From Isosphaeraceae bacterium (GTDB lineage Bacteria; Planctomycetota; Planctomycetia; Isosphaerales; Isosphaeraceae), in assembly GCA_026004735.1 (NCBI GenBank), contig BPJS01000001.1:186001-250000 (forward strand): 64,000 nucleotides of DNA, in the 5' to 3' direction. A program made the position numbers and the translations under genes. The stretch's first letter is position 1. Every line of letters starts with the position of its first letter. Positions 28,196 to 39,609 of the stretch are shown piece after piece. Under the pieces are notes generated by a model that saw only the letters and a list, made by a program, of their open reading frames with translations, was not told the DNA's origin and did no database searches.

Positions 28196-29356
28196 ATGCC
28201 CCGGAGAAGTTCGGGGCGACGCGAGGGCCTTGCCATGTCCTGTGAAGCGACGTCCGACGACTCCCCAGCCGGGTTGGGGAAGGCCCCCCCGCGAGGCGTC
28301 TCGTGGCCGATCCGGATCGGCGTGGGACTGGGCTCCATCATCCTCGGCCTGGCCTTGGGGGCCATGGTCGTGGCGTCCGGCCGACCCGCGATGCCACGCC
28401 CCGCCGTCGCGCTGGAGCCGGCACGCATCGACCTTACGGATCGCCGATTCCGTGACGGGGAGATGCTCCGCGCGGAATTCACGCTCAGGAACGCTTCGAA
28501 GTCGCCGGTCACCGTCCGGCACCTGCTGGCGTCGTGCACATGCTCGACGGCCCTCCCGAAAGATCATCGTCAACCGCCGTTCGACCTCGCGCCGGGCGAG
28601 GAGGTGGTCTGCACCCTCGTGACGAATCTGAAGTCAAGGCTCGGCAAGCAGTCGTTCGAGCTGACGGTGAAGACCGAGTCGGCCGGCACGCCCCTGCCCC
28701 CGGTGACCGGGCGGGTGGAGCTGGTCGTGGACGCCGGCCTCACGCCCTTCCCGGCCTCGCTCGACGCGGGCTCCGCCGACCCGGGCCAGGCCATCCCTGG
28801 GCGGATCGTCCTGGGCGACACGCTCCCGGAGGGCGACGTCACGGTCTCCAGCGTGACCGTGTCGAACCCGGACGTGATGGAGGCGACCTGGCACGCCGAC
28901 GACTCGATCGTCCAACGATCCGCGGACTTCACGATCCGGGGGCGCTACGCCGTCGACCTCACCCTCCGCCCCGACGGCTCGACCCCGACGCACCGCGAGT
29001 TCGTCGACGTCGCCCTCAGCGACGGTAGGGAAATCCGCGTCCCGGTCGTCTTCGGCGCGCGTATCGCGTACGAGGTGACGCCCGCCCGGGTCGTCTTCAG
29101 CGACGTCCGCCCCGGTGATCGCGTCGAACGGACGATCCTCGTCCGCCTGCGTCGGCCCGACGCGAACGACCTCCGCGTCGTCGGCCTACCGACCGGCTTT
29201 CACGCCGACGTCGAACCGTTCGGGCACGCGCAGTGGCGCGTCCGGCTCTCCGGCGAGGTACCCGATCCCGCGGACGCCGCCGGGCTCGAGCTCCGGCTGT
29301 CCGACGGCGCGTCCGCGACGCCCTTCTCCGTCCCGGTCGCGTTCCATCTTGATTGA
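28196..29356 (+). CDS. DUF1573-family membrane-anchored protein (cassette 2)
   Basis: Encodes 386 residues, or 373 if the ATG at 28235 is used. One N-terminal membrane helix (IRIGVGLGSIILGLALGAMVV) is followed by a DUF1573-type domain: RIDLTDRRFRDGEMLRAEF, LRNASKSPVTVRHLLASCTC with the conserved C-x-C-S, and FDLAPGEEVVCTLVTNLKS. Further Ig-like units follow (VVFSDVRPGDRVERTILVRL). Unlike the lipoprotein at 2002 it is held by a transmembrane helix. It starts 4 bp after the LolA-like gene, and the DUF1559 gene begins 13 bp after its stop. The C-x-C pair may bind metal or form a mixed disulfide (inference). Confidence 0.85.
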   Translation: MPRRSSGRREGLAMSCEATSDDSPAGLGKAPPRGVSWPIRIGVGLGSIILGLALGAMVVASGRPAMPRPAVALEPARIDLTDRRFRDGEMLRAEFTLRNASKSPVTVRHLLASCTCSTALPKDHRQPPFDLAPGEEVVCTLVTNLKSRLGKQSFELTVKTESAGTPLPPVTGRVELVVDAGLTPFPASLDAGSADPGQAIPGRIVLGDTLPEGDVTVSSVTVSNPDVMEATWHADDSIVQRSADFTIRGRYAVDLTLRPDGSTPTHREFVDVALSDGREIRVPVVFGARIAYEVTPARVVFSDVRPGDRVERTILVRLRRPDANDLRVVGLPTGFHADVEPFGHAQWRVRLSGEVPDPADAAGLELRLSDGASATPFSVPVAFHLD

Positions 29357-29369
29357 GCAGGGGGTGCCC

Positions 29370-30434
29370 ATGGGCGGGTTGAGCCGACGCGAGCGCGCGA
29401 TGACCCTGGTCGAGCTGTTGGTCGTGCTGGCGATCATCGGCCTGCTGGTCGCGCTGCTCCTCCCGGCAATCCAGGGGGCGCGCGAGGCCGCCCGCCGGTC
29501 CCGCTGCGCCGGCCATCTCCGGCAGATCGGCCTCGGCCTGCTGATGTATCACGACGTGCACGGGAGCCTGCCCGTCGGTATCGCGTCCACCAACGACCCC
29601 CGGCACTGGGGCCCGCGACCCCCCTGCACGTCCCTGCTCTTCGACGAGAGCTTCCTCGTCTCCATCCTCCCCCACGTCGAGCAGGTCCCCCTCTACCATG
29701 CCCTGAACGCGAGCCTCCACGTCACCGAGGCCGAGAACCGCACCATCCTCTCCATGACTGTGGGCATCTACCTTTGCCCCAGCGACCCCGGCGCCGGGCC
29801 GGGCACGCTCCGACCCAGCCCACCCCTCAAGGCCGTCTTCGGCGAGCCCCCCGAGCCCGTGGCCGGCTCGTTCACCAGCTATGCCGGCTGCCACGGGTCC
29901 TACGCCGTGCTCGCCGCGCCGCACCCCGGGAACGACTGCCGGGTGCCGGCCGCCGCGACGGCCCAGTCCGATGGCGTACTCAACAGCCTGGCCCCGATGC
30001 CATTGTCGGCGGTGCGCGACGGCCTGGGCCACACGATCGTCGTCGGGGAACGCGCGGCCCACCTCCTCAACCGGCGGGACGACGAGCTCGCCGGCGCCCT
30101 GGGATGGTGGTTCATGGGCGGCTGGGGCGACACGATCTTCTCCACGATGACCCCGATCAACGAGGTCCATCGCGACGGCGGCTTGTCGAACTACGCTCTC
30201 ATGACGGGCTCATGGAGCATGCATCCGGGAGGCATGAACACGCTGCGCTGCGACGGCTCGGTCCACTTCGTCACGGAGACTGTCGACTCCTGGCCGATGG
30301 CCCCCGGGACCGGGCAGCCCGTCGGCCTGTCCCCCGGTGACGAGGCAGGCACGTACTGGGTGGGCGAGGCCCGGCCGGGGATCTGGCAGGCACTCGGCAC
30401 TCGCGCCGGGGGCGAAGTGCTCTCGGACGATTAG
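29370..30434 (+). CDS. DUF1559 pseudopilin-like protein (cassette 2)
   Basis: Encodes 354 residues from ATG 29370. The prepilin leader is short (GGLSRRERA) before [23 protein letters not shown]1559 features: ARRSRCAGHLRQIGLGLLMY, and at the C-terminus SMHPGGMNTLRCDGSVHFV followed by a 30-residue insert and [16 protein letters not shown]. It follows the DUF1573 gene by 13 bp. The opposite-strand small protein gene starts its stop codon 1 bp later, so the two are tightly convergent. The 3' end of this gene and part of the convergent gene have a degenerate copy at 24979-25173. Confidence 0.92.
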   Translation: MGGLSRRERAMTLVELLVVLAIIGLLVALLLPAIQGAREAARRSRCAGHLRQIGLGLLMYHDVHGSLPVGIASTNDPRHWGPRPPCTSLLFDESFLVSILPHVEQVPLYHALNASLHVTEAENRTILSMTVGIYLCPSDPGAGPGTLRPSPPLKAVFGEPPEPVAGSFTSYAGCHGSYAVLAAPHPGNDCRVPAAATAQSDGVLNSLAPMPLSAVRDGLGHTIVVGERAAHLLNRRDDELAGALGWWFMGGWGDTIFSTMTPINEVHRDGGLSNYALMTGSWSMHPGGMNTLRCDGSVHFVTETVDSWPMAPGTGQPVGLSPGDEAGTYWVGEARPGIWQALGTRAGGEVLSDD

Positions 30435-30830: not shown

Positions 30831-31793
30831 TCAGTACGCCTCCCCCGGCAGGACCTCCCCGCCCTCCCGCGTCCCCAGCGCGCGCCACACCGTCGGCGCC
30901 ACGCCGTCCTTCACAAACCGCACCCCCCCGTCGGCAAACGCGACGTTCACCCCGCCCGGATGCCAGCTCCGTGCCGCCGTATCCAGCGACAGCCGGTCCC
31001 ACGCCGCGTTGTTCGCGTCGCCAAACGGGTTGCCGCCCCGGCAGTCCGGGTCGCGGTGGTTCGGCGGCCGGTGGTGCGAATACATCGTGTGGTTCGGCGC
31101 CCCATAGATCCACCGATTCCCCCGCGCCCGCGGCACCGCCGGCCCGTTCGGCCGGCAGGTCGCCTCGTACGACTCGATCTTCAGGCCCGGCAGGTCGATC
31201 ACATGATTCGCCGCCAACGTCTCGGTCCGCGACACCTCGCTGACCAGCGCCGTCTGGCTCGTCCCATCCCGCACCCGCGCGATCGAGATCCGCGAGTTCT
31301 CAAACAGAATCCCGTCGTTGTCGATCACCGAGTGCCGCGCGCCGACGCTCATCATGTAGTTGACCGGCGACTGCTCCGGCGTGTCGAACACCGACGTCGT
31401 GTCGCTCGGACACAGGAACGCCGCCACCCGCATCCGCCGCGCCGTGTCGTTCTCCGGCCCGCCAACGCCTCGGTCGGCGTTCAGGCTGAAGTTGATCGCG
31501 TCGAAAATGGGCCGCGCGTCCAGCTCGGGCAACACCTGCGCAAAAGCGCTGTAGACCAGCCCCAGGCCATCGACCCGCGACCGCACCCGCCCCGGCGGAA
31601 ACGTATTGTGGGCCGAATGGTAGTTCTGCATCGCCAGCGCAATCTGCTTCAGATTGTTGGTGCACTCGGCCCGCCGCGCCGCCTCCCGCGCCGCCTGCAC
31701 CGCCGGCAGCAACATCGCCACCAGCACCCCAATGACCGCAATCACCACCAGCACCTCAATCAGCGTAAATCCGCCGCTCGAGCGCCGTCTCAT
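30831..31793 (-). CDS. DUF1559 pseudopilin-like protein
   Basis: Encodes 320 residues from ATG 31793, preceded by GGGGAG. The prepilin head is RRRSSGGFTLIEVLVVIAVIG, with cleavage expected between Gly and Phe. [20 protein letters not shown] and, at the end, [19 protein letters not shown] then WRALGTREGGEVLPG complete the family pattern. An internal segment before the tail (YGAPNHTMYSHHRPPNHRDP) is typical for the DUF1559 variable domain. The small membrane protein gene lies 29 bp downstream. Probably exported and pilin-like; whether it polymerises is unknown. Confidence 0.93.
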   Translation of the reverse strand: MRRRSSGGFTLIEVLVVIAVIGVLVAMLLPAVQAAREAARRAECTNNLKQIALAMQNYHSAHNTFPPGRVRSRVDGLGLVYSAFAQVLPELDARPIFDAINFSLNADRGVGGPENDTARRMRVAAFLCPSDTTSVFDTPEQSPVNYMMSVGARHSVIDNDGILFENSRISIARVRDGTSQTALVSEVSRTETLAANHVIDLPGLKIESYEATCRPNGPAVPRARGNRWIYGAPNHTMYSHHRPPNHRDPDCRGGNPFGDANNAAWDRLSLDTAARSWHPGGVNVAFADGGVRFVKDGVAPTVWRALGTREGGEVLPGEAY

Positions 31794-31943
31794 GAGATCT
31801 CCCCGCCAAACAGCCCGCGACAAAACTCCGCCTCTCTCTCGGCATTCTAACCCGAAAGCCCCCATTTCCGCAGGCGAAACGGCCGACGCGCTAAAACCCC
31901 TACCCACGCCCGCAAACCGGCCGCGACTCGCCCGCCGCCGCGG

Positions 31944-34685
31944 TCACTTCACCGGCCCGATCCCCGGACGGTCGGCCAGCGGTGCAAAGACGTTTTCCCG
32001 CTCCAGCGGAATCTGGAACGCGTCGGCCACCCGCGTCATGTAGTGGCAGCGGGCGTTCCACCAGAGCACGTCGATCGCTCGCTCCAGCCCGTAGTGCGCC
32101 ACCAGCCCCCGCCAGTCCGCCTCGGTCATCGACCACGGTTCCTTGGCCAGCCGCTTCGCCAGCGCGAAGGCATATCGGTCTGAGGGATCGAGCGTTGACC
32201 AGTCGCCCGAGGCAAGAGTCCGCGTCCTCTGGTCCAGCTCCGCAGCGCCTAAGCCCGCGACCGCGAGCAGCATCTCGCTGTGGCCCATTCAGTAAAAGCA
32301 GCGGATCGCCCGCGTCACCACCCAAAACAGGCTCTCCTCGAAGACCCGGTCCTGCCGTGCATCGACGGCAAAGGCTCCCGTCGTCGTCCCCCAGGCGCTG
32401 GCCAGCTCCGGCTGGTAGCCCATGCAGACCAGGCTCCACTGGATCTTCACCGGCCGCGGCGGCGCTTGGCCCGCCGGCAGCTTGGCGACGATCTCCTCGA
32501 ACGTCGGCACCCGGATTCTCCCCGGCCGCGCCTGCTGCCCGGCCAGCTCCTGGCGCAGCGACTCGATATCCACGGCCGTCCATTCCGGGTCGTCGATCGT
32601 CGTCGGACCCGGCGGCGCGGTGTCGGCCGTCGCCGGCCGCACCCGCGCCGGCACCTCAACCGCCGCTTGCCGATCCAACCTCACCGCCACCGGCGCGAGT
32701 GCTCCGCCCGGCTCGCCCATGACCCCCAGCGACAGCAACAGCCGGTCCTGAAAATTCCCGTGCGCAACCAGCAACACCAGCGCTACCGTCTGCTCCGGCC
32801 CCAGCCCGTCGATCAGCCGCGCCACCGCCTCATCAGTGACGGAGCTGCCATCAAGCGTCAACTGCTCGGCCAGCGCCAGCGCGTCACGCCCGACGGCGTC
32901 GAAATCGCTCATGTCGCCCCGGCGCAGCCGCCCGATCGCTTCGGCGCTCAGCCCCGCCTCGCGCAGGTCGCGCTCGGCGGTGGCCAGCGCATACGGCGAG
33001 CGGTTGGCCCGCGCAACCGTCCACCGCACCGCCGCCCGCAGCTTCGGCTCCAGCGGATTGCCCGTTCGGTGCGCCGCGTCGAGCGCCAGCATCGCCGCGG
33101 TCGCGCGGGGCAGGGGACCCGCCAGCGCCCGCGCCCAGATCGGCAGCCGCGGCACCGCTCCCTCATCCCGCACAATCGCCAGCCGCCGATACGCCACCTC
33201 ATTCTCCAACACCGGCACCCACGGCCCAGCCGCCCGACCGCCTTCTTCGGCCGCGTCGTCCACCTCCTGAATCGCCGACCGATCCGCCTGCGGCCGCGGC
33301 GCCTCCTCCGCCGCTGGTTGTGGTGCGGGCGTCTCGCCCGCGTCTTCCGGCTCGGACTGCTCGTGGGGCTCACGCCCCACGCTCGCCTCGGCCGTCGCCT
33401 CCGCCGACTTCGCCGCCTCTCGGTCGGCCAGTGCCTGTTCGGTCAGCGTCCAGATCAGGGCTTGCTCCATCTCCGCCGGCTTGAACCCGAACGGACCCCG
33501 CCCGCTCTTGTAGGCCACCTTGCCATCACGATCGATGACATAGAGCCGGCTCGGCATCCCGCTATAGATCGCCCCCACGGCATCGTCGATCGTGTCCACA
33601 ACAAACGGCATCTCAAACCCCAGCTTGCGCTGGCAGGTTTGCGCCACGCCTAGCCGCTCGTCAAACGTCCGCGGCTGTTCGATCCGCACCTCAGCGCGCT
33701 CGTTCGACGCCATCCGCCAGCCGTCCGTCGGATGCGCTTCGCGCACATAGATCATCACGAAGTTGGCCCGGTCCTGATACCGCCGGTACAGCTTCTCGAT
33801 ATTGCCGGCCTGGCTCCGAAACGGCCCGCACGTGATGTTGCCAAAGACCAGCACCACCGGCTTCTCGCCCACCAGGTCCGAAAGCCTCACCGTCCCCGAT
33901 CCATCCACCTTCCTCAACGTAAACTCCGGCGCGGTCTCACCCACCGCCGGACCGGGCTGCAACGAACCGATCTCCTGCGCAAACAGCCCGCGGATCAGGG
34001 TCGCTTTGTCCGGTCCATCATCCCGCGCTGAGCTTCCACCTCCCGAACCCGGCCGCGAACCCCCGCCCGGCATCGGCAGAATCCGCTTCAGATCATCAAG
34101 CGATAAAAACCCCAAACCGCCCGAATCCGCTCGCTCAAAAAACGCCAGCAACTCCTCCCGGGTCACGCGGCCATCACTATCGGCGTCCGCCTCAAAGTAG
34201 AGCATCGAACCCGGCGACGGCGCCAGCGCATGCTCCGGCCAGACGATATCATCCCCACGGATCGCCCCGTTGCCGTCGCGGTCCAACCGCGCGAAGTCCT
34301 CCGAAGTACCCGGAAACTCCCACCGGCTCAGCGCATAATCTCCATCCTTGTCATACTTGGCCGCCAACACCGGACCGACAAACCGCGTCTGCGCCACCGC
34401 CCGCCGGAACCAGCCGTCGGTCGGACCAAGCCGGCTGCCCTGCAAGATGTCGGCCAACATGTCCAGCCACTCCGGCCGGTTCGGGTCCCGCTCCAGACTC
34501 TGAGCCAGCCAGCGGCCAAACTCCGCCGATCCAGGCGCCTCCAGCCACTCCCGCACCGCCGGGCTCAGCGGCGGCACCTCTCCCGACTTCGCCCCGTCGG
34601 CCGCCTCCTCCTGAGCCGACACGCTGACCGCCCCAACCACAGCCAGCGCCATCCCCAGCGCCAAGCCGGCGCACAGTCGGTCCAC
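31944..34685 (-). CDS. Candidate selenoprotein: EF-hand, deiodinase-like redoxin, tandem AhpD/CMD domains
   Basis: Read through one in-frame TGA (32289-32291), the gene encodes 913 residues. Signal peptide 1-24; EF-hand loops near 112-123 (DKDGDYALSRWE), 135-146 and 167-178; a thioredoxin-fold domain at ~245-415 with deiodinase traits (FGNITCGPFRSQ, active Cys286, and YVREAHPTDGW); a Glu/Ala/Pro-rich linker; then two CMD/AhpD-like domains. The TGA is residue 799 in WVVTRAIRCFY-U-MGHSEM. The paralogue at 36453-37826 has WIVSRANNCTYCMGHQE, so TGA replaces the second active-site Cys. The 114 residues after it remain homologous and unbroken. A SECIS-like hairpin follows. The role is presumably thiol/peroxide redox chemistry in the periplasm (inference). 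The alternative is a nonsense mutation. Confidence 0.8.
32240..32283 (-). promoter_or_regulatory. Candidate bacterial SECIS element
   Basis: In the RNA, the inner stem GCUCGC/GCGGGC (32268-32263 with 32258-32253, one G-U pair) closes a four-base loop GGUC at 32262-32259. The outer stem CAGCG/CGCUG (32280-32276 with 32247-32243) encloses it, with further pairs beyond one mismatch. The loop begins 26 nt after the UGA, inside the range for bacterial SECIS elements, and GGUC is the apical loop of the E. coli fdhF SECIS that SelB binds. Folding was done by eye. Confidence 0.6.
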
Positions 34686-34835: not shown

Positions 34836-35225
34836 TCACAACTCCCGAAACACCGTCACCGACGGGCTGGTACCCACCACGTAGCTGACCCGCTTGCGCA
34901 GTTCGCGCCCCTCGGGATCGCGCAGCACCAGATCGACCGGAATCCGCAGGTTGGCATCGTCGTCCCGCCCCGGACCAACGACCTCATACTCCACCAGCGC
35001 CAGGCCCGACAACCAGTCCAGATCCTGCACCGTCATCGGCGGCGTGGCCGACTTCAAGTCCGCCGGCTTAGCCCCGCTCTTCCAGCCATCCAGCGCCACC
35101 CGCAACGCCCGCCGGGCCAGCTCCGGCTCAACCGGCGCCGCACGCGGTGGCCCTCCACACCCAGCCACCACCCACACCACAATCCCCAAGCCGCCCACCA
35201 GCACCGCCCGCCGCGCCCACGCCAT
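34836..35225 (-). CDS. Small lipoprotein paired with a DUF1559 gene
   Basis: Encodes 129 residues from ATG 35225 with GAGGAG 9 nt upstream. The signal [18 protein letters not shown] carries a lipobox V-A-G-C. The mature part contains [31 protein letters not shown] and [20 protein letters not shown], ending in [11 protein letters not shown]. The protein at 38036-38434 is a clear homologue (ALDGWRQGGSPAEV, VRLVLRDPQGRPMEKTVTYV). Both lie a few bases downstream of a DUF1559 gene (25 bp here), implying co-expression. They may form a lipoprotein partner of the pilin-like protein (inference). No named domain recognised. Confidence 0.85.
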
Positions 35226-35250
35226 CGCCTCGGTCTCCTCGCTCACGCTC

Positions 35251-36198
35251 TCAATAATCCGCCTGACTGACCACCTCACCCCCCGCCCGCGTCCCAATCG
35301 CACGCCAGGTCTTCAGGTCGATCGTCTCCTTGAGAAACCGCACCGACCCATCCCCAAACGCCACATTGACACCGCCCGGATGCCAGCTCGACGGCGGCAT
35401 CGTCGCCCGCGTCGTCAGAAAAAACCCGCACGACCGCCCATTCGGCGCCGAGCTGTGCTGGTACGTGTGCTGCCCATGCAGCCACGGCGCCCCCATGAAC
35501 AGCGGAAACTGATTCGCCAGATCGTTGACATCCAATGCCAGACACATCTGACGCGCCTCGTCCGGCGTCGTCGGCGCGCCCGGATGAAAGAACACATCCT
35601 CCCGCGGACTCACAATCCCGTTGCTCCCGTCGGCCAGGACCCGCTCACTGTAAAACGCCGTGTTGCTCAGCCCATCGCGCACCTCTGCCAGCCGCACCGC
35701 ACTCTCCGCGTAGAAAACCCCATCCGGCAGCGGCAAACCCCCATTCGGCCCCCGCTGCGGCGTCAGCCACATCACCTGCTTACCTTTGTTGGCATGATAA
35801 TTCGTCGCCGCACCCCGCTCCGGCATCCGGTTCGGACCATCCGACGGACACAAAAACGACGACACCACCGTCACGCACACCGTCCGGTTCTCCGGCGCAT
35901 CGGTCGAAAACGACGCGTTCATCGCATTGAACAACGGCTGCTGCTCCAACTGCGGCAACGCCATCGCCAACGCCGAAAACCCCGTGCTCAAATACTGCCC
36001 CGCCGGCAACGCGCCTCGGCTCTCCAGGTAATTGTGCATCGCCAATGCAATCTGCTTCAGATTGTTGGTGCACTGCGCCCGCCGCGCCGCCTCCCGCGCC
36101 GACTGCACCGCCGGCAACAACAACGCAATCAACACCCCAATGATCGCAATCACCACCAGCAACTCGATCAGCGTGAACCCCCGACGCCGCACCGTCAT
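35251..36198 (-). CDS. DUF1559 pseudopilin-like protein with duplicated leader
   Basis: Encodes 315 residues from ATG 36198 (GGAGG 7 nt upstream). The prepilin head [20 protein letters not shown] is followed by [18 protein letters not shown]. The C-terminus has [20 protein letters not shown], then [15 protein letters not shown]. Its first ~50 codons plus ~155 bp upstream are nearly identical to those of the DUF1559 gene at 38440-39453, while the rest differs, consistent with recombination or gene conversion of a 5' module. A conserved hairpin precedes its ribosome-binding site. It is followed by a paired lipoprotein gene after 25 bp. Confidence 0.94.
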
Positions 36199-36354
36199 CG
36201 CAACCCCTCCTCTCGCCGACAACGGCGGGTACGCCGCTGTCTCAATGAATGAAAATGAAAACACAGCCTCACCTCACAAGCCGCAACCAGACCGCCGACG
36301 GGCCGCTCCAGCTCGGCCACCCCTCGGCTCGGTATCACCACCACCCGCCGCCGC
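36048..36354 (-). repeat. 307-bp duplicated module, copy A (DUF1559 head plus leader)
   Basis: Matches 39303-39609 with only five differences by eye: one in the coding part and four in the leader. It covers the start of the DUF1559 gene, the ribosome-binding site, a hairpin and about 110 bp farther upstream. Similarity ends sharply at both edges. Confidence 0.9.
36218..36241 (-). promoter_or_regulatory. Conserved leader hairpin, copy A
   Basis: Minus-strand GACAGCGGCG-TACC-CGCCGTTGTC forms a 10-bp stem with one G-U pair and a four-base loop, ending 20 nt before the ATG at 36198 and just ahead of GGAGG. Copy B differs only in the loop (TATC). Confidence 0.6.
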
Positions 36355-36452: not shown

Positions 36453-37826
36453 TCAACGCTCCAGCGGCAGCCCTGCTGCCTCGGTCAACCGGTCGAAATA
36501 CGCCGCCTCGGTCACGTGGAAGATGATCTCGGCGACCTCCCGGTCCTCAAACCAGCGTTTCAAAGTCTCGACGTCGAAGTCGTCGATCCGCGCCGGGTCG
36601 GTCGTCAGCTTACGCGCAAATGTCGCAACCACCCGATCGGCCGTTATCTCCGACCGGCTGCCGTCCTGGTCCGTCTGACCGTTTGTCAGCAACCGCCGCT
36701 CCTCAGCCGTCCACGGCCGCGACAACGCGTCCAGCTTCGCCACCTCCTCGGGCGTCAACCCTAGCTCTGCCAGCCGACGCCGCGCCAAGTCCAACGCATA
36801 CCACGCCCGGTCATACCGCGCCGCAACATAGGCAATGATCGCCTTGGTCCGCGCGTCGAGGACGCCCTCCGACTCCGCCGCACGGTGCATCGCCACCCGC
36901 GCTGGCCCATGCTTCGGAAACCGCGCCAGCAGCCGGACCCACTGGGGCAGGGGGGCATCGGCCGGCTCATTCGGCAACACGACCCGCGCCGCCGATTCCT
37001 CAACCGGCGCAATCCGCGCCGTCCGTGCCCGAGCCGCCGACAGCGCCGCTTCCACCTCCGCCGCCGTCTCCAGCGCCGGCCGTCGCGACGGCGCCGCCGT
37101 CCCGTCCTCTCCCAGCGGTGCCACCAGGCTCCGGCGACCCCGCGCCTTCTCAGCCACCGGACCCTGATAGTCTCGGTGGTCCTCCTGCGGAATCCGCAAC
37201 GCCCCCGTCCACCGGTTCATCGCGTTGAACCCAGCGACCGCGTGGACAATCTCCAGGATCTGCCCCTCGTCGTACCCCGCCTCCCGCAACGCCGCCACGT
37301 CGCCATCGCCCAGCCGGTGTGGCTCAAACGTGAGCGTCCGCGCCAACCCAAACGCCGCCCGCTCCTTGGAGTCAAACTCCGCCCAGTCAAAGTCGAGCGC
37401 GGCGATCTGATCCTCGGTCATCCCATCGGCCGCTAGCTTCACCTCCTGGTGGCCCATGCAATAGGTGCAGTTGTTCGCCCTGGAGACAATCCAAAACAGG
37501 CGCGTCTTGAACGTGTTGTCCAGCGTCATCGCCGGGTCAGGCTCGCGGTTGAAGCCGCCCATCACCACCCCGGCCGGCAGGTAATGCCTGCGCATTCTCA
37601 TGTTGTTGACAAGGCCCCACCGACCCTTCGAAAAGTCAACCGGCTGCCTGGCCAGTTCCTTCTCCTCCTCGGTCAGCGGCGGCAGCGGCAGGCGAGGCGT
37701 CGCACGCTTCGACGCCTCAAGCGCCTCCTTCATCGCCTCGCGCGTCGGCGGCACCGGCGCTACGCCCTCGTCGGTCACCGCCAACACGGCTACCAACGCA
37801 ACAATCAGACTGCTCATGGTCATCAT
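36453..37826 (-). CDS. Tandem carboxymuconolactone decarboxylase/AhpD-like protein
   Basis: Encodes 457 residues from ATG 37826. A hydrophobic start (SSLIVALVAVLAV) suggests export. The first CMD domain contains FWIVSRANNCTYCMGHQEVK, the AhpD redox motif C-x-x-C-x-x-H, then LDFDWAEFDSKERAAFGLAR and NAMNRWTGALRIPQEDHRDY. A Pro/Ala-rich linker leads to a second, motif-less CMD-like domain (RFPKHGPARVAMHRAAESEG, KAIIAYVAARYDRAWYALD). It is paralogous to the C-terminal half of the candidate selenoprotein at 31944-34685 and provides the Cys-containing comparison. It is probably a thiol-dependent peroxidase-type enzyme (family knowledge), with substrate unknown. It lies between two DUF1559/lipoprotein pairs. 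Confidence 0.88.
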   Translation of the reverse strand: MMTMSSLIVALVAVLAVTDEGVAPVPPTREAMKEALEASKRATPRLPLPPLTEEEKELARQPVDFSKGRWGLVNNMRMRRHYLPAGVVMGGFNREPDPAMTLDNTFKTRLFWIVSRANNCTYCMGHQEVKLAADGMTEDQIAALDFDWAEFDSKERAAFGLARTLTFEPHRLGDGDVAALREAGYDEGQILEIVHAVAGFNAMNRWTGALRIPQEDHRDYQGPVAEKARGRRSLVAPLGEDGTAAPSRRPALETAAEVEAALSAARARTARIAPVEESAARVVLPNEPADAPLPQWVRLLARFPKHGPARVAMHRAAESEGVLDARTKAIIAYVAARYDRAWYALDLARRRLAELGLTPEEVAKLDALSRPWTAEERRLLTNGQTDQDGSRSEITADRVVATFARKLTTDPARIDDFDVETLKRWFEDREVAEIIFHVTEAAYFDRLTEAAGLPLER

Positions 37827-38035
37827 CTCGGTCGCGGCTCCCTGTCTGCTGTTCGTCCCGATCTGCCCAGCTTCAATCTCGAGGCCCATCCCCGATGGCC
37901 CACCTTCCGAATCTCACCATCGGAGAACTCATCCGCTGAGCCGGCCCCGATCCCTCCGTCGCCCTCATCGACGTGCATCGCGGGGTGGCCCGCCGGCCGG
38001 CCGCGGCCGACCGGCGGGCCATCAAGCCGCGACCC

Positions 38036-38434
38036 TTAGAAGTCCAGGTCCTGCCGTGCCACAACCGGGCTCGGCGCTCCCTGCACGACATACGTCACCG
38101 TCTTCTCCATCGGCCGGCCCTGCGGATCCCTGAGCACCAGCCGCACGGCGTACTGCAACCCCAGCCCCAGCGGCTGCGCTTCGCCCTCGAGGCGATAATC
38201 CTCGAGCCGCAGGCCCGACTCCCAGTCCCGGTCCAGCACCTGCACCGGACCGATCGCCGGCACCGTCACCTCCGCCGGCGACCCTCCCTGCCGCCAGCCG
38301 TCAAGCGCCGAACGCAGCACTTGGACCGCCTGATCGGCCGTCGTCTCCGGCGGCAGGCTTTCCCCGCAGCCAGCCAGCACCACGCTGGCAAGCAGCACCG
38401 CAGCCACCCACGAATCCGCAGTCTGGCTCCTCAT
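38036..38434 (-). CDS. Small lipoprotein paired with a DUF1559 gene
   Basis: Encodes 132 residues from ATG 38434. The signal WVAAVLLASVVLAGCGE carries a good lipobox L-A-G-C. The body contains VQVLRSALDGWRQGGSPAEV, DWESGLRLEDYRLEG and VRLVLRDPQGRPMEKTVTYV, homologous to the protein at 34836-35225. It begins 5 bp after the stop of the DUF1559 gene 38440-39453, so the two are almost certainly co-translated. An open frame extending far upstream is antisense to nothing coding and is rejected because the lipoprotein signal fixes the start. Confidence 0.86.
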   Translation of the reverse strand: MRSQTADSWVAAVLLASVVLAGCGESLPPETTADQAVQVLRSALDGWRQGGSPAEVTVPAIGPVQVLDRDWESGLRLEDYRLEGEAQPLGLGLQYAVRLVLRDPQGRPMEKTVTYVVQGAPSPVVARQDLDF

Positions 38435-38439
38435 CGCTC

Positions 38440-39453
38440 TCAGTTGACCTCCCCACCGTCGACCAACTCGCCTTGATCCCGCGAGCCAATCGCCCGCCAC
38501 GTCGGCAGCGCAATCGTCTCCTTGACGAATCGCACCGTCCCGTCCCCAAACAGCACATTCACCCCACCCGGGTGCGCGCTGTTGGCCGTCGTCGAAATCC
38601 GCAGCGGCGGAAACATGCACGACCGCGAGTTCGGCGGCCCCACATGGTAGTACTGTGTCGTAGAGTGGTACCCGTACAGCCACGGCGCCCCAACGTCCGA
38701 CACCCCCTGGTACCTCAGGTCGCGCCAGTTCAGCTCGCGGCAGATCCGAACCGCCTCGTCGATCGTCGCCGGATAAACCCCCGGCCGAAACGTGTCCGAC
38801 TTCTCGGTCGCGATTGCCTGCGAAAAGTCCCCCTTCACATGCTCGCTGAACACCGCCGTGTGGCTCGTCCCGTCCGTGTTGTCGCTCAGCCCCAGCGACC
38901 GGTTCGCAAAAAACATCCCGTTGGGCGGCGGCTGCGCCGCGTTCACACCCGCCGGGTCGCTCTCCTCCGACCCAAACAGAAAATTCGATCCTTCGTTCGC
39001 TCGGTAGTTGTTCCCCGCATACCCAGGGGGCACCTTCGTCTTCGGATCTGACGGACACAGAAACGTCGACACCACCGTCGCCCGCGCCGTCGCGTTCGCA
39101 TCATACCCCCCATTGAGTGGGTCCGGGTTCCACGTCAGATTGAAGTTGATCGCGTTGTACAGCGGTGTCTGCTCCAGATACGGCAGCAGTTGGCTGTGCC
39201 CCGAAAACGCCTTGTTGATGTTGATCGCTCCCCCACTGACCACGATCGTTCGGCTCAGCGGCAACCGACCGTTCGCATCGTGATAGTTGTGCAACGCAAT
39301 CCCAATCTGCTTCAGATTGTTGGTGCACTGCGCCCGCCGCGCCGCCTCCCGCGCCGACTGCACCGCCGGCAACAACAACGCAATCAACACCCCAATGATC
39401 GCAATCACCACCAGCAACTCGATCAGCGTGAACCCCCGACGCCGCGCCGTCAT
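38440..39453 (-). CDS. DUF1559 pseudopilin-like protein with duplicated leader
   Basis: Encodes 337 residues from ATG 39453 (GGAGG 7 nt upstream). Prepilin head [20 protein letters not shown], then [19 protein letters not shown]. The C-terminus reads SAHPGGVNVLFGDGTVRFV and WRAIGSRDQGELVDGG. The 5' part and leader are shared almost base for base with 35251-36198, whereas the variable middle differs. A paired lipoprotein gene starts 5 bp downstream. Probably a secreted surface protein whose N-terminal helix is cleaved by prepilin peptidase (family knowledge). Confidence 0.94.
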   Translation of the reverse strand: MTARRRGFTLIELLVVIAIIGVLIALLLPAVQSAREAARRAQCTNNLKQIGIALHNYHDANGRLPLSRTIVVSGGAININKAFSGHSQLLPYLEQTPLYNAINFNLTWNPDPLNGGYDANATARATVVSTFLCPSDPKTKVPPGYAGNNYRANEGSNFLFGSEESDPAGVNAAQPPPNGMFFANRSLGLSDNTDGTSHTAVFSEHVKGDFSQAIATEKSDTFRPGVYPATIDEAVRICRELNWRDLRYQGVSDVGAPWLYGYHSTTQYYHVGPPNSRSCMFPPLRISTTANSAHPGGVNVLFGDGTVRFVKETIALPTWRAIGSRDQGELVDGGEVN

Positions 39454-39609
39454 CGCAACCCCTCCTCTCGCCGACAACGGCGGATACGCCGCTGTCTCAA
39501 TGAATGAAAATGAAAACACAGCCTCACCTCACAAGCCGCAACCGGACCGCCGACGGGCCGCTCCAGCTCGGCCGCCCCTCGGCTCGGTATCACCACCACC
39601 CACCGCCGC
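39303..39609 (-). repeat. 307-bp duplicated module, copy B (DUF1559 head plus leader)
   Basis: Partner of 36048-36354, 3255 bp away in the same orientation, with five differences. It includes the ribosome-binding site and the leader hairpin. Confidence 0.9.
39473..39496 (-). promoter_or_regulatory. Conserved leader hairpin, copy B
   Basis: Minus-strand GACAGCGGCG-TATC-CGCCGTTGTC, the same 10-bp stem as copy A with a single loop change, 20 nt before the ATG at 39453. Confidence 0.6.

What the first reader, a model, noticed from the sequence alone, without database searches (positions are those of the whole stretch)
31944..34685. In-frame TGA at the second active-site cysteine of an AhpD-like domain: candidate selenoprotein
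Seen: the minus-strand frame is open for 798 codons, meets one TGA (32289-32291), then is open for 114 more codons in the same frame with homology continuing across the stop. Around it: RAIRCFY-TGA-MGHSE. The paralogue ~3 kb away reads RANNCTYCMGHQE. So the TGA sits exactly where the resolving/peroxidatic Cys of C-x-x-C-M-G-H belongs, the classic Cys/Sec replacement. AhpD-like proteins are a known bacterial selenoprotein family. A random nonsense mutation would be expected elsewhere and with decay around it, which is not seen.
Basis: partly seen in the sequence, partly recalled or inferred. Interest (0 to 1): 0.95.

Follow-up and report, generated by a model that had tools for sequence, protein, structure and literature searches.

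The report
Deiodinase fused to sestrin-like selenoprotein
A planctomycete bacterium carries one long gene that joins a thyroid-deiodinase-like domain to a predicted sestrin-like pair of domains, and a UGA codon in its active site is very likely read as selenocysteine, which would give a probably exported redox enzyme its own built-in reducing partner.

Summary
TGA 32289-32291(-) lies in an otherwise open frame (798 codons before, 114 after) at the second Cys of C-F-Y-U-M-G-H. The single-contig 4.82 Mb genome has selA, selB, a tRNA-Sec (anticodon TCA), and a selD that itself carries an in-frame TGA. Across 115 distinct sequences (window included) this codon is TGA (37), TGC (69) or TGT (9), nothing else. 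All 37 TGA forms can make a six-pair hairpin with loop GGUC 26 nt downstream; none of 78 Cys forms can. In 18 of 67 distinct deiodinase-like sequences that site is also TGA, with its own hairpin, and five fusions carry TGA at both sites. I infer an exported thiol/selenol relay: the deiodinase-fold domain reduces a substrate and CxxU regenerates it; substrate unknown. AhpD-like and deiodinase-like selenoproteins are known separately; the fusion and its double-Sec form did not turn up in my searches.

The parts
31944..34685 (-). whole gene: predicted signal peptide / EF-hands / deiodinase-like domain / linker / CMD1 / AhpD-fold domain with Sec (913 residues if TGA 32289-32291 is read through)
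   Evidence: open except for one TGA; domains
32289..32291 (-). TGA, predicted Sec codon (residue 799), second position of C796-x-x-U799
   Evidence: TGA/TGC/TGT only in 115 distinct sequences
32253..32268 (-). predicted bacterial SECIS hairpin GCUCGC-GGUC-GCGGGC; 20 nt between UGA and stem, 26 nt between UGA and loop
   Evidence: 37 of 37 Sec forms make all six pairs, 0 of 78 Cys forms; pair counts; only exact match of UGA-20nt-hairpin in the genome
31947..32585 (-). C-terminal AhpD-fold domain carrying CFY-U-MGH
   Evidence: alignment A1; AlphaFold2 model; structure matches
32616..33245 (-). CMD1: first AhpD-fold domain of the tandem; active-site cysteines absent in the window copy (RANRSPYALATAE)
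   Evidence: PF02627 at 20.4 bits, just under its cut-off of 23; model
33411..33965 (-). deiodinase-like thioredoxin-fold domain; active-site motif FGNITCGPF (Cys286)
   Evidence: PF00837 E 9.8e-32; NF038285 488 bits, cut-off 250; 4tr3 E 6.9e-24
33828..33830 (-). TGC (Cys286), at the position that is TGA in 18 of 67 distinct deiodinase-like sequences
34077..34295 (-). EF-hand region (residues 131-203)
   Evidence: PF13405 30.9 bits (cut-off 25); PF13499 23.6 bits, below its cut-off of 30
34611..34685 (-). predicted signal peptide (MDRLCAGLALGMALAVVGAVSVSA-Q)
   Evidence: cleavage site by eye; hydropathy rule: 57 of 63 deiodinase-like sequences with a complete 5' frame have a comparable segment
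34836..35303 (-). putative lipoprotein of about 155 aa upstream of the gene, no Pfam or NCBIfam family
   Evidence: only two copies in the genome, one upstream of each AhpD-type gene of this window
35251..36264 (-). DUF1559 prepilin-type protein upstream of the lipoprotein
   Evidence: PF07596 170.6 bits, N_methyl, TIGR04294
36453..37889 (-). Cys-containing AhpD-type paralogue (CTYCMGH), two CMD stretches
   Evidence: PF02627 37.2 bits; TIGR01926 88.5 bits, cut-off 81.8
38039..38500 (-). second copy of the putative lipoprotein, upstream of the Cys paralogue
38440..39519 (-). second DUF1559 protein, upstream of the second lipoprotein

Best explanation
The gene at 31944-34685(-) encodes in one frame a deiodinase-like domain and a predicted sestrin-like tandem of AhpD-fold domains, its in-frame UGA is very likely decoded as selenocysteine at the second position of a C-x-x-C redox motif, and the product is predicted to be an exported enzyme that would reduce a peroxide-like or halogenated substrate and recycle itself. 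Proposed steps: (1) SelB with Sec-tRNA is recruited by the GGUC-loop hairpin just after the UGA and inserts Sec799 (inferred; machinery and hairpin are present). (2) The protein is exported by its signal peptide (inferred). (3) The deiodinase-fold domain attacks the oxidised substrate with Cys286, a position that is TGA in some relatives (inferred from fold and motif). (4) The oxidised deiodinase site is reduced by C796/U799 of the sestrin-like domain across a flexible linker, as AhpD reduces AhpC (inferred). (5) The Se-S bond is reset by an unknown periplasmic thiol donor (inferred). Peroxide-like substrates are my first guess.
Against: No protein was measured. Folded alone, the RNA after the UGA is no more stable than shuffles (z -0.22 to +0.80), and in three of the four stretches folded a competing fold wins. 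Sec forms nearly form one clade (2 changes per domain tree), so shared descent explains part of the hairpin's conservation. Two of 17 genomes with a Sec form lack a selA match over the cut-off (G021 has selA in two contig pieces; G015 is 83% complete), and 15 of 28 without a Sec form have selA; Fisher p 0.023, kinship not corrected. Relay: the full fusion model has pTM 0.65 with a disordered linker (model residues 198-244), so no docking is shown. The parts also occur apart: 6 fetched stretches show a Sec deiodinase-like domain without CMD-AhpD and 17 distinct ones a Sec CMD-AhpD without a deiodinase-like domain, some on short contigs.
Confidence: 0.66

Rival explanations
1. The UGA is a nonsense mutation or a genuine stop: the gene makes a 798-residue protein without the AhpD active-site domain and the rest is decaying.
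For: Standard annotation would stop there. Real nonsense codons do occur in this family: G028's TGA is off the Sec codon, which is TGC (L057), and G028 has no selA match; G007's second deiodinase-like copy has a TGA and a TAA inside but Cys at the site (L192).
Against: Identical codon in 37 distinct sequences; no stop in 95 downstream codons in any of them and purifying selection downstream; hairpin only in TGA forms.
Confidence: 0.02
2. The protein is an exported reductive dehalogenase: both catalytic domains have dehalogenating relatives, and each active-site thiol or selenol pulls a halogen from an organic substrate.
For: Best solved relatives of the first domain are type III and type II iodothyronine deiodinases (E 6.9e-24 and 8.2e-19). 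The only AhpD-fold hit by sequence (E <= 1) for the last domain is the debrominase Bmp8 (6ohi, E 0.019), also in the fold lists. Bmp8 is proposed to debrominate reductively with oxidation of its cysteines (PMC5577590, passage).
Against: E 0.019 is weak; by fold other AhpD-like proteins score as well or better, and the rows of the single-domain chains nearly all cover model residues 1-184, i.e. the half without the active site. Zhang et al. [quoted passage not shown] Neighbouring genes were not systematically searched for halogen chemistry.
Confidence: 0.17
3. The system is a thiol-disulfide or repair partner for the DUF1559 prepilin-type protein or the lipoprotein encoded just upstream, i.e. 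an oxidative-folding or surface-maintenance module.
For: Of 86 stretches examined, 47 contain a DUF1559 match and 39 the small lipoprotein, mostly in the order DUF1559 - lipoprotein - redox gene. In this genome the lipoprotein exists only twice, each time upstream of an AhpD-type gene.
Against: DUF1559 is abundant (50 match stretches in this genome), so adjacency alone is weak; no statistical control was run; 39 of 86 stretches lack DUF1559 and 47 lack the lipoprotein, some because the contig is short.
Confidence: 0.15
4. TGA is read as tryptophan or another residue by a general code change or by leaky readthrough.
For: A frame that is open under another code would look the same.
Against: The gene itself ends at a TGA (31944-31946); the non-TGA sequences have only Cys codons at the site, never Trp; the Sec machinery is complete.
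Confidence: 0.01

Closest known systems
Deiodinase-like bacterial selenoproteins (PF00837; Zhang et al. 2005, PMC1088965; NCBIfam NF038285 deiodinase_rel)
   Same: Same family by profile (488 bits, cut-off 250); Sec/Cys exchange at the deiodinase site, as reported for Sargasso Sea sequences (passages).
   Different: The window copy is Cys at that site and is fused to a CMD-AhpD tandem whose Sec lies in the other domain; five relatives have TGA at both sites. The passages I read mention no such fusion.
AhpD-like / CMD-like CxxU selenoproteins, incl. NF041238 AhpD_rel_CFYUT (review PMC13188914)
   Same: AhpD fold, CxxU motif, even the CFYU letters.
   Different: 20.5 bits against a cut-off of 175; here a tandem with a deiodinase-like partner in the same chain; the review passages list AhpD-like and deiodinase-like as separate families.
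AhpC-AhpD alkylhydroperoxidase pair of Mycobacterium tuberculosis (mechanism recalled, and in passages of PMC4674687, PMC11429811)
   Same: A thioredoxin-fold peroxidase-type domain paired with an AhpD-fold CxxC reductase; PF00578 AhpC-TSA also matches the first domain (38.9 bits, cut-off 26).
   Different: Here fused, predicted exported, deiodinase-type first domain, Sec in the AhpD role.
Human Sestrin2 (5dj4, 5cuf; PMC4674687)
   Different: In Sestrin2 the first half is redox-active with one Cys (passages); here the second half carries CxxU. Foldseek's own superposition is loose (TM 0.47/0.55, rmsd 13.1). Bacterial tandem AhpD proteins resembling sestrins were described before (PMC11429811, passages); those passages do not mention Sec.
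Debrominase Bmp8 (6ohi/6ohj)
   Same: AhpD fold, cysteine-pair chemistry; only AhpD-fold sequence hit in the PDB (E 0.019).
   Different: Single domain, weak similarity, biosynthetic enzyme of brominated pyrroles (passage).

Membership tests
Bacterial selenoprotein (UGA-encoded Sec) | In-frame UGA at a redox Cys position with Cys-containing homologues | tested here: met
   37 TGA, 69 TGC, 9 TGT, 0 other of 115 distinct hits
Bacterial selenoprotein (UGA-encoded Sec) | selA, selB, selD and tRNA-Sec in the same genome | tested here: met
Bacterial selenoprotein (UGA-encoded Sec) | SECIS-type hairpin just after the UGA with a G in a small apical loop | tested here: met
   37 of 37 with six pairs and loop GGUC, 0 of 78 Cys forms; pair counts. 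Folding of the single sequence is not distinctive
Bacterial selenoprotein (UGA-encoded Sec) | Selenium in the purified full-length protein | not testable with these tools
   needs 75Se labelling or mass spectrometry
Deiodinase family protein NF038285 / PF00837 | Profile score above the curated cut-off | tested here: met
   488.1 bits (cut-off 250); 110.6 bits (cut-off 27)
Iodothyronine deiodinase (enzyme) | Sec at the active site of the deiodinase domain | tested here: not met
   Cys286 (TGC) in the window; TGA in 18 of 67 distinct sequences
Iodothyronine deiodinase (enzyme) | Reductive removal of iodine from iodothyronines | not testable with these tools
   no assay
CMD / AhpD family PF02627 | Profile score above cut-off for the Sec domain | tested here: not met
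   no match for the Sec domain; CMD1 20.4 bits, cut-off 23; 2 of 18 members of A1 match at E<=1
CMD / AhpD family PF02627 | AhpD fold with a CxxC-type motif and nearby His | tested here: met
   AlphaFold2 model and matches to AhpD-like structures; C796-x-x-U799-M-G-H802
NF041238 alkylhydroperoxidase-related (seleno)protein | Score above 175 bits | tested here: not met
   20.5-20.7 bits
Sestrin | Tandem AhpD fold in one chain | tested here: met
Sestrin | Electronegative hinge / GATOR2-binding motif in place of the redox motif in the second half | not tested
   the second half here keeps the redox motif CFYUMGH, so it is not expected; feature as stated in PMC11429811 (passages)
Bmp8-type debrominase | Significant sequence similarity over the domain | tested here: inconclusive

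The most novel reading that the evidence does not exclude
Planctomycetes hold a dedicated, exported selenium machine: a deiodinase-fold enzyme permanently wired to a sestrin-like selenol reductase, in versions with zero, one or two selenocysteines per chain, working on the cell surface together with a dedicated lipoprotein and prepilin-like protein as a Sec-dependent dehalogenase or hydroperoxidase that brings its own reductant. That would be the first deiodinase-family enzyme with a known, covalently attached recycling partner.
Probability: 0.3. Interest if true: 0.88.

Novelty: new variant of a known kind. Interest (0 to 1): 0.72.

Why it matters
Bacterial deiodinase-like proteins were reported in 2005 (PMC1088965) and still have no established function, and what recycles deiodinase-type active sites is an old question (recalled). 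Here a deiodinase-family domain is fused to an AhpD/sestrin-type reductase, naming a partner that can be tested directly. The family offers Cys-Cys, Cys-Sec and Sec-Sec versions of one enzyme, a ready-made comparison of what Sec buys at each step. It also suggests that annotation which stops at UGA would cut a widespread planctomycete enzyme at its active site.

Tried and rejected
Single-sequence folding of the region after the UGA gave no stability signal; the hairpin showed only by comparison. Pseudogene or chance nonsense: rejected by codon conservation, purifying selection and the hairpin contrast. Code reassignment: rejected, the gene ends in TGA. tRNA genes in the window: none. The tRNA-Sec model also matches other tRNAs (14 matches in this genome, two over the cut-off; the second is tRNA-Ser by ARAGORN), so ARAGORN's TCA anticodon decided. 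Repeated Sec/Cys switching as evidence: not supported, each tree needs only 2 changes (quick LG+G4 trees, columns around the Sec site removed, 1 of 115 AhpD rows dropped as short; the tool warned of long branches, the window's AhpD row among them). Domain docking in the fusion: unresolved (pTM 0.65).

Limits of the counts; tblastn E <= 1e-20 on the window, L057-L076 and L107-L196; hits not covering the site and identical repeats dropped; weaker paralogues such as 36453-37889 fall below the cut. Weaker matches with TGA, TAA or TAG inside (E above 1e-20) were not inspected one by one, and that list was itself cut. The set of 17 Sec-form genomes was put together by hand. The phylum-wide search (392 genomes, E <= 1e-25) found the domain in only 5, the window's own included; one lies outside the class and has one TGA (G134). 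The signal-peptide rule tries every start codon of the upstream frame and is permissive.

Literature. Searches (open-licence PMC only; two returned nothing). I saw listings, and passages of nine papers; PMC6627142 and others were listed but not opened. Nothing I saw describes a deiodinase-AhpD fusion. The selenoprotein table in the supplement of PMC4807772 was not readable here and could list part of it.

Full report
Observation. The minus strand of 31944-34685 reads 798 codons, TGA at 32289-32291, and 114 more codons to a terminal TGA. Around the TGA stands RAIRCFY-TGA-MGHSE. The paralogue at 36453-37889(-) has CTYCMGH at the matching place.

Sec machinery. The window is C1:186001-250000 of a single-contig genome of 4.82 Mb (93% complete). 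It holds selA (495 bits, cut-off 267.9), selB (305 bits alone, 329 with its neighbours in frame, cut-off 242), selD (355 bits, cut-off 125) and a tRNA-Sec (70.9 bits) whose anticodon ARAGORN reads as TCA. selD itself reads NCAG-TGA-AGK, so this genome is predicted to use Sec in at least one other protein.

Same codon in relatives. Searching 45 genomes of the order found 39 with a match, paralogues included. On the collected stretches (window, L057-L076, L107-L196; E <= 1e-20) there are 115 distinct hits covering the site, the window's included: TGA 37, TGC 69, TGT 9, anything else 0. None of the 37 has a stop in the 95 codons after the site, and among the 16 closest pairs the 14 with unsaturated dS show dN/dS of 0.03-0.21 downstream. 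Stops elsewhere look different: G028's TGA lies off the Sec codon, which is TGC, and that genome has no selA match. Of 17 genomes of the order with a TGA form in either domain, 15 have selA over the cut-off; of the other 28, 15 do (Fisher p 0.023, kinship not corrected). Of the two exceptions, G021 has selA split over two contigs and G015 is an 83% complete assembly of 1190 contigs.

Hairpin. After the UGA all 37 TGA forms can make the six pairs of GCUCGC-GGUC-GCGGGC; none of 78 Cys forms can. On 33 distinct sequences 198 of 198 cells are paired, two pairs show changes on both sides, and sliding the partner drops pairing to 52.5% or less. Third positions of codons 8-12 are 0.86-1.0 identical, while codons 13-29 lie between 0.32 and 0.62. 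In the whole genome the pattern UGA-20nt-hairpin matches exactly once, here; one other place matches with two mismatches. Against this, the lone sequence does not fold better than its shuffles, and the Sec forms are close to one clade, so the conservation is partly descent.

The other half. Residues 69-416 belong to NCBIfam NF038285, deiodinase family protein (488 bits, cut-off 250), and residues 248-409 to PF00837. The closest solved structures are type III and type II iodothyronine deiodinases (E 6.9e-24 and 8.2e-19). The active-site motif is FGNITCGPF with Cys286. In 18 of 67 distinct sequences this codon is TGA (TGC 39, TGT 10, other 0), giving FGSFT-U-GPF in most, close to the animal FGSCTU motif (recalled). 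These TGA forms carry a different hairpin, GGUCCC-AGUUU-GGGACC, in 17 of 18, against 0 of 49 Cys forms, with a G-C to A-U exchange in six of 17 distinct rows; there the tool's counts of pairs with double changes and of pair types do not exceed the shuffles, while cells paired and the covariation score do.

Export and neighbours. A signal-peptide-like start is present in the window protein and in 57 of 63 deiodinase-like sequences with a complete upstream frame, the window's among them (a permissive hydropathy rule, not a trained predictor). Upstream lie a putative lipoprotein of about 155 aa without a Pfam or NCBIfam family and a DUF1559 prepilin-type protein. In 86 stretches (a few overlapping), 47 hold DUF1559 and 39 the lipoprotein, mostly in the order DUF1559 - lipoprotein - redox gene. 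The lipoprotein has only two copies in this genome, each upstream of one AhpD-type gene, whereas DUF1559 gives 50 match stretches. No statistical control of this gene order was run.

How it probably works. Shown: gene structure, codon conservation, hairpin-forming sequence, machinery genes, domain membership. Inferred: Sec insertion, export, and a relay in which the deiodinase-fold thiol or selenol reduces a substrate and is itself reduced by C796/U799, as AhpD serves AhpC. That a Sec deiodinase-like domain is fused only to a Sec AhpD domain (5 of 5) fits the idea that a selenol site is best reduced by another selenol, but five related cases are thin evidence. Peroxide-like substrates are my first guess, because AhpC/AhpD and sestrin chemistry point there; halogenated substrates are the main rival, because both domains have dehalogenating relatives, one of them only weakly similar.

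What is known. Deiodinase-like and AhpD-like or CMD-like selenoproteins are separate entries in reviews (PMC13188914, PMC9312934, passages) and in the Sargasso Sea and GOS papers (PMC1088965, PMC2398784, passages). The 2026 review mentions operons of Prx-like and AhpD-like selenoproteins. A planctomycete genome paper reports selenoproteins, without the words deiodinase or AhpD in its main text (PMC4807772, term search and passages; its supplement was not readable). Nothing I saw in the searches listed in Tried and rejected describes the fusion or a double-Sec version. The Sec domain falls far below the nearest curated selenoprotein model. I therefore call it a new variant of a known kind.

Verdict. 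The candidate selenoprotein is real with high confidence (my estimate is about 0.97 for Sec decoding); the relay mechanism is likely but untested.

Noticed in passing
L018 (G000:C1:2538645-2539574), residue 18 of the translation: The genome's selD itself carries an in-frame TGA at the NCAG-U-AGK active-site position: a second predicted selenoprotein.
   Followed up: partly
window 34836-35303 and 38039-38500 (-): A putative lipoprotein family of about 155 aa, unknown to Pfam and NCBIfam, found only twice in the genome, each time between a DUF1559 gene and an AhpD-type redox gene; also upstream in many relatives.
   Followed up: partly
L119, L123, L138, L157, L184: Predicted proteins with two Sec codons, one in the deiodinase-like and one in the AhpD-like domain; L119 and L123 also carry a further Sec deiodinase-like stretch, L157 and L184 a further Sec CMD-AhpD gene.
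   Followed up: partly
window 29115-30434 (+), 30831-31907, 35251-36264 and 38440-39519 (-): Several DUF1559 prepilin-type genes cluster around the redox genes, on both strands; the family gives 50 match stretches genome-wide.
   Followed up: partly
L128:1498-1545: The one Sec form whose SECIS stem differs inside by a double change (C-G to G-C) while the loop GGUC is kept.
   Followed up: yes
L057 (G028) and L192 (G007): Apparent ordinary pseudogenes of the same families (stops away from the active site) in genomes without a selA match over the cut-off.
   Followed up: partly
L173: A Cys-Cys fusion on a contig labelled Byssovorax (Myxococcota): a mis-binned planctomycete contig or a transfer.
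   Followed up: no
G000:C1:2302353-2302391 (-): The only other place in the genome within two mismatches of the UGA-20nt-hairpin pattern; not examined for an open frame.
   Followed up: no
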